A stretch of 64,000 bases of DNA from Desulfurispora thermophila DSM 16022 (lineage in GTDB: Bacteria; Bacillota; Desulfotomaculia; Desulfotomaculales; Desulfurisporaceae). Both the position numbers and the translations under genes were made by a program. Under the pieces are notes generated by a model. The model saw only the letters and a list, made by a program, of their open reading frames with translations, was not told the DNA's origin and did no database searches. The stretch is taken from positions 1 to 64,000 of the forward strand of contig NZ_AQWN01000004.1 of the NCBI RefSeq assembly GCF_000376385.1, in the 5' to 3' direction. Positions 584 to 43,635 of this stretch are shown piece by piece. The number at the start of each line of letters is the position of its first letter. The first letter of the stretch is position 1.

Positions 584-1336
584 TTAAGCAGGTTCATTTT
601 TTAACAAAATCGCTGATCCATCATTGTAGAAAATAACACTTTTATGGTGGTTCATCAAATCAATTAGCTGACCAAAACAATCGTCTGTAAATTCCTCAAA
701 AATGTAGGGACAAATTCCTACAACGGGTAGCTGCTTAAAGATATCATTCAAAGAATTTTCAAACTCTATTAAGTTTGGGAAATGCCCTCCGCAGGATAAC
801 AAGTGAGGAGAACCTGAACCCCACATTATCTTATATCCCAGTTCAATACTTTTTTTGGCCTCATTTACCCATGTTTGAACGGGGCCATTTTTCCCTAAAC
901 GATTATACTGTGATGTTAAATCTACAATAGTTAGTGAATTTTTTGCTTCAAGTTCTTCGATAGGTAACCCTCTTATTGATAGTTCCTGCCTAACGTCATC
1001 AGGATTCTGCCACCAGCATCCTTTAAACAGCCTGTATCCCCTGGATAACCCCTTTTTGAAAAACTCTGCCTCAAGGTTATACAGATTATTTGTGTCACGG
1101 GTAACCGCCATGACATGGTCATGTTGAGGATCAATGCTATCCAGAAAACTCTGCCCTTTGATACCGGTAATATTGGTTTCTTGGAGTTTGGATGACAGGG
1201 TTTCTTTTTTTATGCGCCACTCTTTACCGAGTTTGATACCGGGCAGTTTTCCGGCTCTTAGCCATCTATAGATTGTATTAGGAGTTGTTTTTAGGATTTC
1301 CGCTACCTCTTCTACGGTAAATAGTTCCTCGTTCAT
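584..1336 (-). CDS. Helix-turn-helix regulator with MEDS (DcmR-type) sensory domain
   Basis: 250 residues. Residues about 5-50 form an excisionase/MerR-like helix-turn-helix (VEEVAEIL, then TIYRWLRAGKLPG). The rest matches the MEDS domain (methanogen/methylotroph, DcmR sensory), known from DcmR, which controls dichloromethane dehalogenase, and from regulators of methylotrophic methanogenesis. The open frame reaches back to a GTG at 1354, but that GTG lies inside the likely ribosome binding site GGAGAAGG, which stands 8 bases before the ATG at 1336, so the ATG is preferred. The neighbouring corrinoid methyltransferase operon (2.8-7.3 kb) is a plausible target, which is inference. The upstream region is very AT-rich and repeated. 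Confidence 0.8.
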   Translation of the reverse strand: MNEELFTVEEVAEILKTTPNTIYRWLRAGKLPGIKLGKEWRIKKETLSSKLQETNITGIKGQSFLDSIDPQHDHVMAVTRDTNNLYNLEAEFFKKGLSRGYRLFKGCWWQNPDDVRQELSIRGLPIEELEAKNSLTIVDLTSQYNRLGKNGPVQTWVNEAKKSIELGYKIMWGSGSPHLLSCGGHFPNLIEFENSLNDIFKQLPVVGICPYIFEEFTDDCFGQLIDLMNHHKSVIFYNDGSAILLKNEPA

Positions 1337-1427
1337 ATCAACAGCCTTCTCCACTTTTTTTTATTTACAATGATACCACGGCGCATTGAACATATCAAGT
1401 AAAACACATACCTTCAAAACGTTTATT

Positions 1428-2622: not shown

Positions 2623-2791
2623 GTTCTTGTCAAGACCGAGCGCAACGAGCCAGGCAAAGCTTGAATTCGTTAGCCTCGGTACCCGCAATTTAAGGGAACC
2701 GGTTCCCGGCCACCGTCCATCCATATAGTTCTTTAATTGGAATTTCGGTTGCCGGGTGGTTCTAAAACCAATATACGAGGAGGAATTGAGG

Positions 2792-3703
2792 TTGGCAGAT
2801 TTTCATGTACTGAAGATTGGTGACAATACGATAGGGGGACCAATGGGTTCAACAACCGGCCTGGTGGTAGGAAGTATTTTCTACGACAAACACTCTATTG
2901 TTTCCGATCCTTTTGCCGGTGAGTTTGATAAATCCCGGGCGGCAGAATTGGTGGACCATGTAAATAAACTCAGTAAGCGATATGGGGTCCAAATGGCCTT
3001 TGACATCATTGCCGCTTCATCTAAAGCTATGGAACGTTTTTTGGAATTTGTTAGTGCGCGTACAAGCCTCCCTTTATTAATAAATGCTACTGAGGCTGAG
3101 GTCCGTATAGCTGGGCTCGAGGCTGCTGCTAAACTTGGCATCCTAAATCGCTCTATTTATGCTTCACTGAATGAGGATACCGAAGACGAAGAATTGGAAG
3201 TACTTGGCCGGCATCGCCCTGCTGCCGTTATGATTCTTGCCAGCGATGTTAGTAACCCTACCCCTGAGGGAACTTGCGAAATGATTGAAAACTATTATCA
3301 CCCTATGTTAAAGGAGATTGGTGTAGTAGCTCCGATTGTTGATGTGGGCACCATGGACCCACCTTCGATAGGCTTAAATATCCGCCAAATTCAGGCTGTG
3401 CGGGAACGTTTCGGTTATCCTGTGGGTTGTGCCTTTTCTAACTGTTTTCCACAATGGACCAGCGTGAAAAAGTTGGGCCGGGAATGGGTAAACCTGTCTT
3501 TAGCAACGGCCCTTGCCGTCTGTCGTGCAGCCGGTGCAGACTATTTGCACTACGGCATTGTTGAGAAGGCTGCAATAGCAGCCCATGTGTCGGGGACTGC
3601 AGAAGTATTTTATGGATTTGCGGCTAAGGAACTGGACGGGCATAAATTGCCGGAAAGTCATCCCCTGTGGAATATGTTCAAGCTATCAGGGGAGATGGAG
3701 TAA
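2792..3703 (+). CDS. MtrH-like methyltransferase (methylcorrinoid:tetrahydrofolate type)
   Basis: 303 residues. The sequence follows the MtrH family throughout: LKIGDNTIGGP near the start, VGSIFYDKH, FDKSRAAELV, the segment VRIAGLEAAAKLG, and a C-terminal alanine-rich part. In methanogens MtrH moves a methyl group between tetrahydromethanopterin and a corrinoid. Bacterial homologues next to corrinoid proteins are thought to transfer the methyl group to tetrahydrofolate. The frame opens at a GTG at 2756, but GGAGG at 2780 places the start at the TTG at 2792 (8-base spacing). The stop overlaps the next ATG by one base, so the genes are coupled. The substrate of the system is unknown. Confidence 0.8.
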   Translation: MADFHVLKIGDNTIGGPMGSTTGLVVGSIFYDKHSIVSDPFAGEFDKSRAAELVDHVNKLSKRYGVQMAFDIIAASSKAMERFLEFVSARTSLPLLINATEAEVRIAGLEAAAKLGILNRSIYASLNEDTEDEELEVLGRHRPAAVMILASDVSNPTPEGTCEMIENYYHPMLKEIGVVAPIVDVGTMDPPSIGLNIRQIQAVRERFGYPVGCAFSNCFPQWTSVKKLGREWVNLSLATALAVCRAAGADYLHYGIVEKAAIAAHVSGTAEVFYGFAAKELDGHKLPESHPLWNMFKLSGEME

Positions 3704-4860
3704 TGTCACTCCGGATAAAGTTAGCAGAATTGCTTTCCGGAAACTGGAACGGTCCACCACTAATTGACATTGGAACAACATCCCTCACCGGCATTCGGGC
3801 CAGTGCACTTCCGCATTTGCGAAAAGATAGTGCGGTGGCACATCCTATTTACGAAACTCTGCCTTTGGCACCAATGGAATGTATCCGTTTGGGGTCTGAT
3901 TTCATCCGTACCGGTCTGTTATTTGACCCCCCGGTGGTAACCGATGAACCTTTTACTGATGCTTTTGGCGTTCAATGGCAGAGAGATGAAGGTTTTTTAT
4001 CACCAATTAGCCATCCTTTGGAAACTGCAGGGCTTAAGGATATTTTACATTACCCTAAACCCCAATGGCGTAACCAAGTACAGCTTGTTGAACCGGGATT
4101 TAGAAACGCTGGCATTTTAATTGCGGATGCTCCTTGCCCAGGCCTCTTAGATCTGAGCTTTATGCTGCGCAACCCCTGGCGGTTTATGGAAGACATTGCT
4201 GAAAAAAACTGGCAGATCGCCACAGCCCTCCTTGATTGGTCATTGGAAACTATTGTTGATGCCTATAACTACATGTTGAGTTCGCTTCCTGAACAACCGG
4301 ATATCATCATTTATAACGATGATCTGGGCTACCAGGACGGTATGTTTTTTTCTCCATCGGATTTCCGTAATCTTGTCCGTCCGTATATGCATTCGTTGCT
4401 GACCCGGCTTAGACAGTTAACCCCGGCAGCGATCTGTTTTCACAGTTGTGGAGCTATTCGACCTATTCTGAAGGATATAGCAGAATTGGGTATCGAGTTA
4501 ATTAACCTGGACACCAATGCTAAAGGGATGAATGTTATGGAAGTGCGGCGAGAACTGCCTGCTTCTATAATATTGCATGGTTTAAACGACCTGTGTGCTT
4601 TGGGCGAAGCCGTAGCGAATAAGGACAAGGCTGGAATAGCCTTATTAGTTACAGAGTTGGCTCAAAGTGCACCTGTCATTGCCGGGCCCCTGGACAATAT
4701 GTCTTCAGCAGAAGAAGTGCTTGCGGCTGTCCGCGGGGCTGCATTTATCCGCAATTTCTCCAACGATGATTTTGAAAAATTGCGTCACATTGGTCCGGTT
4801 CGAAACGTTATTGAAGAGGCAATAGAGAAAACATTTTCAACAGAATTGCCCGTCCTCTAA
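3703..4860 (+). CDS. UroD-family zinc methyltransferase (MtaA/MtbA-like)
   Basis: 385 residues, uroporphyrinogen-decarboxylase fold. The zinc motif H-x-C of the MtaA/MtbA methyltransferases is visible as H247-S-C249 followed by G. True HemE enzymes lack this motif, so a role in methyl transfer to or from a corrinoid is more likely. The ATG at 3703 overlaps the MtrH stop (TAATG) and has GGGGAGATGGAG in front, while the longer open frame starts inside the upstream gene and is rejected. It is the second gene of the operon and may act on a methylated substrate together with, or instead of, the UroD domain of the following fusion protein. Confidence 0.75.
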   Translation: MSLRIKLAELLSGNWNGPPLIDIGTTSLTGIRASALPHLRKDSAVAHPIYETLPLAPMECIRLGSDFIRTGLLFDPPVVTDEPFTDAFGVQWQRDEGFLSPISHPLETAGLKDILHYPKPQWRNQVQLVEPGFRNAGILIADAPCPGLLDLSFMLRNPWRFMEDIAEKNWQIATALLDWSLETIVDAYNYMLSSLPEQPDIIIYNDDLGYQDGMFFSPSDFRNLVRPYMHSLLTRLRQLTPAAICFHSCGAIRPILKDIAELGIELINLDTNAKGMNVMEVRRELPASIILHGLNDLCALGEAVANKDKAGIALLVTELAQSAPVIAGPLDNMSSAEEVLAAVRGAAFIRNFSNDDFEKLRHIGPVRNVIEEAIEKTFSTELPVL

Positions 4861-5002: not shown

Positions 5003-6886
5003 ATGCCCAAGATGACCAGCCGGGAAAGAGTTTTTGCGGCAGTTACTATGAAAGAGCTGCCGGATCAGGTACCCGTAAACCCGTTGTTGATGACACGGGG
5101 CATTCGCGAGGGGGGAGTTAGAGTTGATGAGGTTCTGTTCGATGGTGAGGCCATGGCCAAAGCCAAAATTAAAGCTCATCAAAAATTCGGTGGAGACGTG
5201 GTGGTTGCTGGAACCGACTTGTTTACCCCGGTAGAGAACCTGGGTGCTGTATTAGAATACCTGCCTTATGCACAACCATCGTTAGTTGAACATCCCGCAC
5301 CTACAAAAGAAGCTTTTTACCGTCTAAAAGATAACTACTTAAAGAATGGCTTTAATCCGGAAAAAGGCCGTTTGAGAGCAATTCAAGAAGAAATAAGAAC
5401 CTTTATCAGGGAAGGCTGGAAAGATACCCACGCGCTTGCTACCCCCGTTGGCGGTCCGATTACTACCGCCCAGCTGGTTACCGGTACCGACAATTTTTTC
5501 ACTTATTTGGCTGAAGATCCGGATTTTGCCAAAGAAGTTATCGAATTATGTCTGGATGTTTGTAAAAATGTCTGCCGAATGATGTTTGAAGCTGGTGTTG
5601 ATGTCGTCAATATTCTTGACCCATTCTGCTCCTGTGACATTTTGCCACCGGAAATGTATAGAGAGTTTGGTTTGCCTTACCAGCAGAGGTTATTTGATTA
5701 TATTAAGAAAATTGGCGGTATCGGGTTTACTCATACATGTACCTTTACCCAACCCATTTGGTCCGACATTGCCAATAGCGGTACCTTTAACTTTAACGGC
5801 GATATGTACCCTGGAGCAGACCATGCCAAGCGTGCTATCGGAGACAAAATTTCACTGATGGGTACGCTCAGTCCCTACTCAACATTAGTCCATGGCACCC
5901 CCGAAGATGTTGCCAGGGAGGTCAAGAAACTGGCTGTTGAAGTTGGGTATAACGGCGGGTTTGTCTGCATGCCCGGTTGTGACATTGACTGGACTGTTCC
6001 AGAAGAAAACATGCGCGCGTTGATTGATACCTGTGCATCAATCAAGTACCCGATAGATATCGAGGCCCTTGGTGACTTGAGCAATGTTTATTTGCCCGGC
6101 CACCCCAAACACCCCGGTATGCGCAAAATATCAACGGATAACGACCAAATGGTTAGAATGGGAATTCAAAAGACTCAGGTAAAGAAAACTCCTGAAGAAG
6201 AGGTTTATTTTAACCTGGCCGATGCGATTAAGGAATATGATGGTGACAAGGTTGTAGAGTGGACCAAAAAAGGTTTGGAAATGGGTTTGACCCCCCAGCA
6301 AATCATATTTAACGGTTTATCCCTCGGAATGAAAATGGTTGGCGATTTGTATGAGCGTAACGAACGTTTTGTTACCGACATGCTAAAATCTGCCAAGACT
6401 ATGGAAAAGGCTATGGCTATTCTTGTTCCGCTGCTGGAAGCGTCGGGTTCAGGAGATGGGGAAAAAGAAACGGTCGTAATGGGTCTGGTGCGCGGCAACA
6501 CCCAAGACATTGGTAAAAATCTCGTGGTTCTTATGTTGAAGGCAAATGGCTATAATGTTATCGACCTTGGCAAGAACGTTAAACCTGAAGAGTTTATTGA
6601 AGCAGCAGAAGCTAATAATGCTATAGCCATTGGAATGTCTGTTATGACCAACTCATCTGTTACCTATGCAGAGAAAACTTTGGAGCTACTTAGAGAGAGA
6701 GGTCTAGCCGACAAGTACCTGGTGATGACCGGCGGAGCGGCGATGAATGAGCAAATTGCCGCGCAAATAGGTACCAAATATGGTTCTGATGCCAACGCAG
6801 CTGTTTCATTAGTAAAAGAGTATATTGCAGCAAGACAAAGGTCCAGACAAGTACCTGGTGATGACCGGCGGAGCGGCGACGAATAA
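5003..6886 (+). CDS. UroD methyltransferase fused to corrinoid-binding domain
   Basis: 627 residues. Residues 1 to about 370 are a UroD-type methyltransferase with the zinc motif H244-T-C246. About 395-475 is the four-helix corrinoid cap (B12-binding-2), and about 488-610 the Rossmann-like B12-binding domain. The usual DxHxxG signature reads N499-T-Q501-D-I-G504, so the axial histidine and its partner aspartate are both replaced. AGGGAGGG precedes the ATG by 7 bases. The last 14 residues (after AARQRS) come from a duplicated, out-of-frame stretch of the gene's own 3' end, so the natural C-terminus may have been altered. The family demethylates a small substrate and loads the corrinoid. The substrate cannot be told from sequence. 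Confidence 0.8.
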   Translation: MPKMTSRERVFAAVTMKELPDQVPVNPLLMTRGIREGGVRVDEVLFDGEAMAKAKIKAHQKFGGDVVVAGTDLFTPVENLGAVLEYLPYAQPSLVEHPAPTKEAFYRLKDNYLKNGFNPEKGRLRAIQEEIRTFIREGWKDTHALATPVGGPITTAQLVTGTDNFFTYLAEDPDFAKEVIELCLDVCKNVCRMMFEAGVDVVNILDPFCSCDILPPEMYREFGLPYQQRLFDYIKKIGGIGFTHTCTFTQPIWSDIANSGTFNFNGDMYPGADHAKRAIGDKISLMGTLSPYSTLVHGTPEDVAREVKKLAVEVGYNGGFVCMPGCDIDWTVPEENMRALIDTCASIKYPIDIEALGDLSNVYLPGHPKHPGMRKISTDNDQMVRMGIQKTQVKKTPEEEVYFNLADAIKEYDGDKVVEWTKKGLEMGLTPQQIIFNGLSLGMKMVGDLYERNERFVTDMLKSAKTMEKAMAILVPLLEASGSGDGEKETVVMGLVRGNTQDIGKNLVVLMLKANGYNVIDLGKNVKPEEFIEAAEANNAIAIGMSVMTNSSVTYAEKTLELLRERGLADKYLVMTGGAAMNEQIAAQIGTKYGSDANAAVSLVKEYIAARQRSRQVPGDDRRSGDE

Positions 6887-6913
6887 GCAGATTGCTGCGC
6901 AAATGGGTACCAA
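6846..6913 (+). repeat. 68-bp partial duplication of the B12-domain coding sequence
   Basis: Matches 6710-6777 at 63 of 68 positions, offset by 136 bases and therefore out of frame. In its own frame it reads DKYLVMTGGAATNKQ and then runs to a stop at about 6947. It looks like the tail of a lost tandem paralogue. Confidence 0.8.
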
Positions 6914-6995: not shown

Positions 6996-7295
6996 ATGCC
7001 CATATACGACTTTGTTTGTAGTGAATGTAATGCAAGTCGTCCGGTGTTAGTGGATTATGAAGCCAAAGAGGGATTGGAACTCATATGTGTCCACTGTGGA
7101 GGAGTGATGAGAGCTGCCCCGGTAGCGATGTTCACTGTCATTAGTTCGACAACAGTAGAACAGCCCGCTGATCAGAAAAAAGTTAAGCCTTGCGGACACA
7201 CTCATCATTGTCGTTGTGCCGCCATAAAACAAAAGGCACCTAATCCTTTTCAAAAACAAATTGATAAAGCTCTGGGGAATATCTTATATAATTAG
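6996..7295 (+). CDS. FmdB-type zinc-ribbon protein
   Basis: 99 residues. MPIYDFVCSEC opens a zinc ribbon with C-x2-C pairs at about 9/12 and 32/35, as in the FmdB putative regulatory family, which is often found beside C1-metabolism genes. The C-terminal half is unusual: it carries a Cys/His cluster (CGHTHHCRC), which could be a second metal site. AAAGGAGG stands six bases before the ATG at 6996. The in-frame TTG at 6990 touches the Shine-Dalgarno sequence and is rejected. It is probably the last gene of the methyltransferase operon, and is a small accessory or regulatory protein by inference. Confidence 0.7.
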   Translation: MPIYDFVCSECNASRPVLVDYEAKEGLELICVHCGGVMRAAPVAMFTVISSTTVEQPADQKKVKPCGHTHHCRCAAIKQKAPNPFQKQIDKALGNILYN

Positions 7296-41874: not shown

Positions 41875-43635
41875 ATGCCCTACGATGCAACCAAGCTCAA
41901 GGACTATGAGATTGCCGAACTGGCGGAGAAGAACATGCCCACCCCCATGCAGTGGGCGGAAAAGCTGGGCCTGGACAAGGACGAGATCATCCCCTACGGC
42001 CGCATCTGCAAGCTGGACTTCATGAAGATCATCAAGCGGCTGGAAGGCCGCCCGGACGGCAAATACATCAACGTCACCGCCATTACCCCCACCCCGCTGG
42101 GCGAAGGTAAAACCACCACCACCATGGGCCTGACCGAGGGTCTGGGCAAGCGGGGCATGAACGTGGGCGCGGCCATTCGCCAGCCTTCCGGCGGTCCCAC
42201 CTTCAACATCAAGGGCACTGCGGCCGGTGGTGGCAACGCGCTGGCCATCCCCATGACCGAGTTCTCCCTGGGCCTGACCGGCGACCTGAACGACATTGTC
42301 AACGCCCACAACCTGTGCATGGTGGCTCTGACCGCCCGCATGCAGCACGAGCGCAACTATGACGATGCCGAGCTGGCCAAGCGTAACCTGCGCCGCCTGG
42401 ACATCGACCCCACCAACGTGCAGATGGGCTGGGTCATTGACTTCTGCGCCCAGGCTCTGCGCAACATCATCATTGGTATCGGCGGCAAGATGGACGGCTA
42501 CATGATGCAGTCCAAATTTGGCATTGCCGTGAGCTCCGAGCTGATGGCCATCCTGGCCGTGGCCACCGACCTGAAGGATCTGCGCCAGCGCATTGGCAGG
42601 ATCATCGTGGCCTACGACAAGAAGGGCCGTCCGGTGACCGCCGAGGACCTGGAAGTGGCCGGTGCCATGACCGCCTTCATGCGCAACGCCATCAACCCCA
42701 CCCTGATCAGCACGGCCGAATACCAGCCCGTCCTGGTGCACGCCGGTCCGTTCGCCAACATTGCCATCGGTCAGTCCTCCATCATCGCCGACCGCATCGG
42801 TCTGAAGATGTTCGACTACCACATCACCGAGAGCGGCTTCGCTGCCGACATCGGCTTTGAGAAGTTCTGGAACGTCAAGTGCCGCATGAGCGGGCTCACC
42901 CCCAACGTGTCCGTGGTCACCACCACCATCCGCGCCCTCAAGATGCACGGCGGTGGTCCCAAAGTGGTGCCCGGCCGTCCGCTGCCCGAAGAGTACACCA
43001 GGGAAAACCTGGAACTGCTGGAAAAGGGTATTCCCAATCTGCTGCACCACATCGGCATTGTGCGCAAGGCGGGCATCAACCCGGTGGTCTGCATCAACGC
43101 CTTCCACACCGACACCAAGGAAGAGATCGCCATGGTGCGTCGCTATGCCGAGCAGGCCGGCGCCCGTTGCGCCCTGTCCGAGCACTGGCTCAAGGGCGGC
43201 GAAGGTGCGCTGGAGCTGGCCGACGCCGTGATCGATGCCTGCAATGAAAAAGTGGACTTCAAGTTCCTCTATCCGCTGGAAATGCCGCTGCGCCAGCGTG
43301 TGGAAGTCATTGCCAGGGAAGTCTACGGTGCCGACGGTGTGACCTGGACTCCGGAAGCCGAAGCCAAAGCCAAGATGTTCGAGGAAAATCCCGAATACAG
43401 AGACTTCGCCACCATGATGGTCAAGACCCACCTCTCCTTAAGTGCCGACCCCAACCTCAAGGGCGTGCCCAAGGGCTGGGTGCTGCCGGTGCGCGACGTG
43501 CTCATCTTCGCCGGCGCCAAGTTCCTCTGCCCCATGACCGGTACCATCAGCCTGATGCCCGGTACCAGCTCCGACCCGGCCTTCCGCCGCATCGATGTGG
43601 ATGTGGAGACCGGTGCGGTGAAGGGCCTGTTCTAA
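41875..43635 (+). CDS. fhs: Formate-tetrahydrofolate ligase
   Basis: 586 residues, some 25-30 more than usual, mainly at the N-terminus. P-loop near residue 75 ([20 protein letters not shown]), then [20 protein letters not shown], and [16 protein letters not shown]. Makes 10-formyl-tetrahydrofolate from formate, THF and ATP, the entry of the methyl branch of the Wood-Ljungdahl pathway. This fits the methylcorrinoid:THF chemistry suggested for the 2.8-6.9 kb operon. GGGAGAGGG precedes the ATG. Codon use is strongly biased to C-ending codons, as in highly expressed genes. Long open frames on the opposite strand are shadows of this bias. Confidence 0.97.

What the first reader, a model, noticed from the sequence alone, without database searches (positions are those of the whole stretch)
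6485..6520. Corrinoid domain lacking the axial histidine
In the UroD-corrinoid fusion the B12 motif normally written DxHxxG is N499-T-Q501-D-I-G504. Both Asp and His of the cobalt-ligand pair are changed, while the surrounding GLVRG and DIGKN are kept. The cofactor may bind base-off without a protein ligand, as in the corrinoid iron-sulfur protein, or have Gln or water at the cobalt. This would raise the Co(II/I) potential and alter activation needs.
Basis: partly seen in the sequence, partly recalled or inferred. Interest (0 to 1): 0.75.

Follow-up and report, generated by a model that had tools for sequence, protein, structure and literature searches.

The report
CmuA chloromethane enzyme without cobalt histidine
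The gene encodes CmuA, the known vitamin-B12 enzyme that strips the methyl group from chloromethane; the missing cobalt-binding histidine is real but is shared by every CmuA sampled, including the biochemically studied one, so it is a trait of the whole enzyme family and not an oddity of this genome.

Summary
In detail: residues 494-506 read GLVRGNTQDIGKN, with N499 and Q501 where methyltransferase corrinoid proteins carry Asp and His. The protein is CmuA, the chloromethane:corrinoid methyltransferase, in a cmuB-cmuC-cmuA-fmdB cluster. The genome matches Desulfurispora thermophila DSM 16022, whose cmuBCA genes were published in 2014. NxQxxG is present in 21 of 21 CmuA proteins retrieved without reference to the motif, including CmuA of Methylorubrum extorquens CM4, which the literature describes as corrinoid-dependent and active. 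DxH is present in 68 of 69 sampled non-CmuA relatives. The change apparently happened once, at the root of CmuA. A second change goes with it: the Leu of the SxL motif, which in MetH packs against the ligand His, is Met in 29 of 29 CmuA. The lower cobalt face is thus rebuilt as a set, most likely as base-off cobalamin without a protein ligand; water or Gln ligation is not excluded. Five of 19 CmuA genomes lack the ATP-dependent corrinoid activator (RACE); these five also lack any short stand-alone corrinoid protein, so CmuA apparently does not need RACE. Ligation, redox potential and activation are untested. Mostly known biology, with one testable mechanistic point.

The parts
5003..6886 (+). 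cmuA: UroD-type methyltransferase domain (res. 6-345) fused to B12-binding_2 (404-474) and B12-binding (490-599) domains
   Evidence: TIGR01463 mtaA_cmuA 428.9 bits, cut-off 235.4; Pfam PF01208, PF02607, PF02310; 67.4% identity over 97% to CmuA of M. extorquens CM4
6482..6520 (+). GLVRGNTQDIGKN; N499 (6497-6499) and Q501 (6503-6505) replace Asp and the axial His
6638..6658 (+). S546-V-M548-T-N-S-S552, equivalent of the SxL loop under the corrin; Leu to Met at 548
   Evidence: Leu at 548 in 26/26 DxH relatives, Met in 29/29 CmuA; role of the Leu from PMC13331322
5732..5740 (+). H244-T-C246, putative zinc ligands of the UroD domain (with C326, 5978-5980)
   Evidence: H244 and C246 invariant in 30/30 CmuA rows; zinc role by analogy to MtaA, from general knowledge
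2756..3703 (+). cmuB: MtrH-type methylcobalamin:tetrahydrofolate methyltransferase
   Evidence: PF02007 and PRK00979; 70% identity to CmuB of pJM105
3667..4860 (+). cmuC: UroD-type protein of unknown role, essential for growth on chloromethane in strain CM4
   Evidence: PF01208; 53% identity to CmuC of pJM105; PMC4197683
6996..7295 (+). fmdB-type zinc-ribbon protein, usual partner downstream of cmuA
   Evidence: 42% identity to CM4 FmdB, 43% to pJM105 FmdB; TIGR02605 below cut-off
584..1354 (-). HTH_17 + MEDS-domain regulator, probable C1/halomethane-responsive transcription factor divergent from cmuBCA
   Evidence: PF12728, PF14417; 56-79% homologues upstream of cmu in all 7 other Bacillota loci L009-L014 and L025, none in the aerobes

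Best explanation
Shown here: the gene is CmuA by sequence, the two-domain chloromethane:corrinoid methyltransferase of the cmu pathway. Its Asp-x-His to Asn-x-Gln change is a fixed character of the whole CmuA clade, most simply acquired once, and is accompanied by rebuilding of the second loop under the cobalt (SxL to SxM). Inferred: the UroD domain presents chloromethane to Co(I) bound in the C-terminal domain, Co(I) displaces chloride, and CmuB passes the methyl group to tetrahydrofolate. Inferred: cobalamin is bound base-off, with its tail in the preserved GG/S pocket and no strong protein ligand, Q501 and M548 filling the lower face. That should favour four-coordinate Co(I), raise the Co(II/I) potential and weaken stabilisation of the methyl-Co(III) state compared with His-on relatives. 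Inferred from gene presence: Co(I) is restored in at least some CmuA hosts without the ATP-dependent RACE activator, for example by a ferredoxin-reductase-like PaaE protein in aerobes.
For: Family score and architecture. Full-length identity to CM4 CmuA, with the identical GLVRGNTQDIGKN motif in CM4 (L028). Literature describes CM4 CmuA as a methyltransferase/corrinoid-binding protein that works with CmuB in chloromethane dehalogenation (PMC4197683; PMC5585157), with 1.6 umol/min/mg quoted (PMC13222342). cmuBCA-fmdB order conserved. Single origin: CmuA_Q is one side of a branch, support 100/100, all 200 bootstrap trees. 19 CmuA-diagnostic sites in the B12 domain, including N499, Q501, M548 and N550. 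In a phylum scan the NxQ pattern occurred in 8 of 398 genomes, all within CmuA, against the DxH pattern in 286 of 398. Ligand-free or blocked lower faces that favour Co(I) are known in QueG and TsrM (PMC13331322), and loss of the alpha-ligand tunes the potential in CFeSP (PMC4934906). Five of 19 CmuA genomes have no RACE domain, and exactly those five have no stand-alone corrinoid protein under 350 aa (Fisher p = 8.6e-5). No listed RACE gene lies within 20 kb of cmuA (against 63). By contrast the separate corrinoid protein CdmC of the Cdm chloromethane system needed activator, ATP and Ti(III) (PMC13222342).
Against: No structure of CmuA is in the PDB copy (best B12-domain chains are other proteins). 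The AlphaFold model is poor exactly at 498-501 (pLDDT under 50, mean 66), so the geometry is not established. CFeSP lacks an alpha-ligand yet still uses RACo, so the RACE correlation need not follow from the His loss. The RACE-negative genomes are two actinobacteria and three Hyphomicrobiales-type alphaproteobacteria, some drafts or MAGs, so kinship and incompleteness weaken the test. The window's own genome has three RACE genes, the nearest about 207 kb away.
Confidence: 0.68

Rival explanations
1. Q501 (directly or through an ordered water) or M548 supplies a weak axial ligand, so the site is base-off with Gln/water/thioether ligation and not ligand-free.
For: Q501 and M548 are invariant in CmuA, which suggests a function and not mere loss; OxsB coordinates cobalt through an Asn-held water network from the position equivalent to M548 (PMC13331322).
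Against: Amide and thioether are poor ligands for Co(II)/Co(III) corrins compared with imidazole (general knowledge); no structural or spectroscopic data were available here.
Confidence: 0.22
2. The cofactor stays base-on: with His gone, the cobalamin's own dimethylbenzimidazole ligates cobalt.
For: The Asp-His pair that replaces the base is absent.
Against: The tail-binding features of the base-off fold (G504, S546, G577-G578 and their spacing) are conserved, and the domain aligns end to end with base-off proteins 1Y80, 2I2X and 1BMT.
Confidence: 0.07
3. Sequencing error, pseudogene or degenerate domain that no longer binds a corrinoid.
For: The C-terminal tail is altered by a 68-nt duplication.
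Against: Identical motif in independent genomes of Bacillota, Pseudomonadota and Actinomycetota and in the active CM4 enzyme; open frame, conservation of other functional sites.
Confidence: 0.01

Closest known systems
CmuA of Methylorubrum (Methylobacterium) extorquens CM4, chloromethane dehalogenase component
   Same: Same two-domain architecture, 67% identity over 97% of the length, identical GLVRGNTQDIGKN motif, cmuB/cmuC/fmdB partners
   Different: Anaerobic Bacillota host, contiguous cmuBCA-fmdB, MEDS regulator upstream, no paaE/hutI/metF/purU/folD beside the genes
CmuA of anaerobes reported by Nadalig et al. 2014 (Desulfotomaculum alcoholivorax, Desulfurispora thermophila AQWNv1_40006, Thermincola potens, Thermosediminibacter oceani)
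   Different: The paper does not discuss the corrinoid motif in the passages read, and lists FmdB as not detected for this strain, although it is present at 6996-7295
Methylotrophic corrinoid proteins with DXHXXG (MtaC, MtbC, MttC, MtgC) and MetH
   Same: Same B12-binding_2 + B12-binding fold, 30-40% identity
   Different: They carry Asp-x-His and SxL; CmuA carries Asn-x-Gln and SxM
CdmB/CdmC of Acetobacterium dehalogenans (2026)
   Same: Also a UroD-type MT1 plus corrinoid protein acting on chloromethane
   Different: Separate corrinoid protein, reduced by an ATP-dependent activator, no zinc; CmuA diverged early from it in the UroD tree
Corrinoid iron-sulfur protein, QueG, TsrM, OxsB (no His ligand)
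   Same: Cobalt without a His ligand (PMC13331322, PMC4934906)
   Different: Other folds or other domain families; not homologous solutions at this position

Membership tests
CmuA (chloromethane:corrinoid methyltransferase) | Score above the curated MtaA/CmuA cut-off (TIGR01463) | tested here: met
   428.9 bits against 235.4
CmuA (chloromethane:corrinoid methyltransferase) | UroD domain fused to a corrinoid-binding domain in one chain | tested here: met
   PF01208 6-345, PF02607 404-474, PF02310 490-599
CmuA (chloromethane:corrinoid methyltransferase) | High full-length identity to characterised CmuA and cmuB/cmuC neighbours | tested here: met
   67.4% to CM4 CmuA over 97%; cmuB and cmuC 70% and 53% to the pJM105 proteins
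CmuA (chloromethane:corrinoid methyltransferase) | One clade with CmuA in a tree of the B12 domain | tested here: met
   100/100 support
CmuA (chloromethane:corrinoid methyltransferase) | Transfer of the methyl group of chloromethane to the bound corrinoid; zinc and cobalt content | not testable with these tools
   Needs the protein; H244, C246 and C326 are invariant
His-on (DXHXXG) corrinoid methyltransferase class | Axial His and its Asp partner | tested here: not met
   N499 and Q501
His-on (DXHXXG) corrinoid methyltransferase class | Same fold family and remaining consensus G-x41-S...GG | tested here: met
Corrinoid iron-sulfur protein | CFeSP domains and Fe-S cluster | tested here: not met
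   Pfam finds only URO-D and B12-binding domains

The most novel reading that the evidence does not exclude
CmuA is a naturally His-less member of the MtaC/MetH corrinoid fold whose lower face was rebuilt as a unit (D to N, H to Q, L to M). This would set the Co(II/I) potential high enough for reactivation by ordinary reductants, freeing the enzyme from the ATP-dependent RACE activator and letting the pathway work in aerobes.
Probability: 0.3. Interest if true: 0.65.

Novelty: already known. Interest (0 to 1): 0.36.

Why it matters
CmuA is the marker enzyme of the characterised bacterial sink for chloromethane, an ozone-depleting gas. How its cobalt is ligated and kept reduced has no structural answer in the PDB copy searched. 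A family-wide NxQ/SxM lower face, with CmuA present in genomes that have no RACE activator, turns this into a simple set of point mutants and redox titrations. It would also show how far the MtaC/MetH fold can work without its best-known residue.

Tried and rejected
Error or pseudogene: rejected by 21 of 21 homologues. Local peculiarity of this genome: rejected, family-wide. His loss as a by-product of fusion to UroD: not settled; the 607-630 aa DxH proteins L063, L067 and L072 looked like UroD-B12 fusions by length, but L063 reads as B12-binding followed by PocR- and histidine-kinase-like sequence (read from the translation, no domain scan). Papers by Vannelli 1999, Studer 2001, Studer 2002 and Coulter 1999, which may already comment on the motif, ligand or activation, are not held. 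From memory, unverified: Coulter's corrinoid enzyme was activated by dithiothreitol plus chloromethane, which would fit a high potential. Pattern search for the second His-less motif (ECxQEIG) across the phylum gave chance hits only.

Full report
What is there. The ORF 5003-6886 (+) encodes 627 aa, and residues 494-506 are GLVRGNTQDIGKN, with N499-T-Q501-D-I-G504 at 6497-6514. Ungapped alignment to solved corrinoid proteins places Q501 on the ligand His: MtaC 2I2X_B position 136, and the His of the corresponding motifs in 1Y80, 7XCN and 3EZX.

What it is. NCBIfam gives TIGR01463 MtaA/CmuA at 428.9 bits (cut-off 235.4). Pfam gives URO-D, B12-binding_2 and B12-binding. In plasmid records the best matches are CmuA of pCMU01 of M. 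extorquens CM4 (67.4% over 97%) and a cloned CmuA on pJM105 (71.2%). The neighbours are cmuB (MtrH type), cmuC and fmdB in the order cmuB-cmuC-cmuA-fmdB. The genome holds 2,821,579 bases in 19 contigs. Nadalig et al. 2014 give 2.82 Mb and 19 contigs for Desulfurispora thermophila DSM 16022 and list its CmuA, CmuB and CmuC as AQWNv1_40006, 40005 and 40004 (PMC4197683). The window is therefore almost certainly that genome (inference) and the gene is already in the literature.

Is the missing His special to this gene? No. Nineteen loci were fetched by peptides outside the motif, and with the two plasmid CmuAs all 21 carry Asn and Gln (one has NAQ in place of NTQ). In 30 aligned rows N499, Q501 and G504 are invariant, and so are H244, C246 and C326 of the UroD domain, the putative zinc site (some of these rows were found by the motif, so the 21 of 21 is the unbiased count). 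The CmuAs come from Bacillota, Pseudomonadota and Actinomycetota.

How unusual is it in the wider fold? The nearest non-CmuA relatives in the phylum have DxH in 26 of 26 rows, as do 23 of 24 further corrinoid domains in CmuA-bearing genomes and 19 of 19 in a third sample: 68 of 69 altogether. The three other full-length corrinoid domains of the window's own genome have DxH. Exact DNA patterns over 398 genomes found GNxQDIGKN in 8 genomes, always within CmuA, and GDxHDIGKN in 286. A tree of the domain puts all CmuA on one side of one branch (100/100, all 200 bootstraps), on a long stem of 1.8 changes per column.

A second change. A review of cobalamin domains describes the ligand His on the loop after strand 1 and a Leu on the loop after strand 3 that stacks on it; the exceptions OxsB, TsrM and TokK put Asn-water, Arg or Trp on that second loop (PMC13331322). 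In CmuA that Leu (548) is Met in 29 of 29 rows, and T549, N550 and S552 are also CmuA-specific. The tail pocket (S546, G577, G578) and the spacing DXHXXG-41/42-SXL-26/28-GG (consensus quoted in PMC4915002) are kept. So the change looks like a coordinated rebuilding of the lower face with base-off binding probably retained. This is sequence inference: the AlphaFold model has pLDDT under 50 at 498-501 and cannot show the geometry.

Function. CM4 CmuA has the identical motif, and the literature describes it as the corrinoid-binding methyltransferase that takes the methyl group from chloromethane, with CmuB passing it to tetrahydrofolate (PMC4197683, PMC5585157), at 1.6 umol/min/mg (quoted in PMC13222342). 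The NxQ site therefore works. [quoted passage not shown] The same direction is expected for CmuA but has not been measured in anything read here.

Activation. The RACE C-terminal domain (PF14574) is present in 14 of 19 CmuA-bearing genomes and absent from 5: Pseudonocardia, Actinomycetospora, Notoacmeibacter, a Rhizobiales MAG and Ancylobacter. Those five are exactly the genomes without a stand-alone corrinoid protein under 350 aa; they hold CmuA and a MetH-like long frame, and the two actinobacteria also a ~400 aa match (Fisher p 8.6e-5, not corrected for kinship). In one genome (G409) four RACE genes sit each within 5 kb of four stand-alone corrinoid genes, while none of the listed RACE genes is within 20 kb of cmuA. 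The simplest reading is that RACE serves the His-type proteins and CmuA can do without it. The PaaE-like oxidoreductase proposed as a possible reactivator in CM4 (PMC3621897) lies beside the cmu genes in 9 of 10 alphaproteobacterial loci checked, and in none of the Bacillota or actinobacterial ones. In contrast, CdmC of the separate Cdm chloromethane system needed activator, ATP and Ti(III) (PMC13222342). Against a simple link, ligand-free CFeSP still uses RACo.

Verdict. Observation confirmed; interpretation partly supported. The object is known (CmuA), and probably this exact gene is published. What remains of interest is a mechanistic hypothesis with cheap tests. Whether the original CmuA papers already remarked on the Gln could not be checked because they are not held; searches of the open library found no statement on it.

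Noticed in passing
window 6710-6777 and 6846-6913: A 68-nt direct repeat (93%) copies CmuA codons ~570-592 just behind the gene; it replaces the usual C-terminus (window ends ...QVPGDDRRSGDE, relatives end near residue 614) and opens a gap before fmdB that is absent in Thermosediminibacter.
   Followed up: partly
window 6996-7295: An FmdB homologue (42-43% to CM4/pJM105 FmdB) is present, although Nadalig et al. 2014 Table 2 lists FmdB as not detected for D. thermophila.
   Followed up: yes
window 584-1354 (-): The gene beside cmuBCA has an excisionase-like HTH plus a MEDS (DcmR-type sensory) domain; homologues sit upstream of cmu in all 8 Bacillota loci. The 'excisionase' that the 2014 paper took as a sign of horizontal transfer is probably this, i.e. 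a regulator.
   Followed up: partly
L119:7308-7964 (-), Desulfocucumis palustris: A second His-less corrinoid protein outside CmuA: 218 aa stand-alone, ECSQEIG in place of GDxHDIG and GSPML in place of LSALL, clustered with a UroD-type MT1, an MtrH-type MT2 and SSS symporters; nearest relative in its order 39%. Probably an independent His to Gln change; substrate unknown.
   Followed up: partly
L063, L067, L072: 607-630 aa proteins: DxH-type B12-binding domain followed (read in L063) by what looks like a PocR-like sensor and a histidine kinase, a possible corrinoid- or C1-sensing kinase (domains read by eye, not scanned).
   Followed up: no
window 41875-43635: Formate-tetrahydrofolate ligase-like ORF (read from its translation) in the same window, fitting a tetrahydrofolate route for the methyl group.
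   Followed up: no
PMC4197683 Table 1: The 2014 paper files Desulfurispora and Desulfotomaculum under Deltaproteobacteria; NCBI taxonomy places Desulfurispora in Bacillota.
   Followed up: yes
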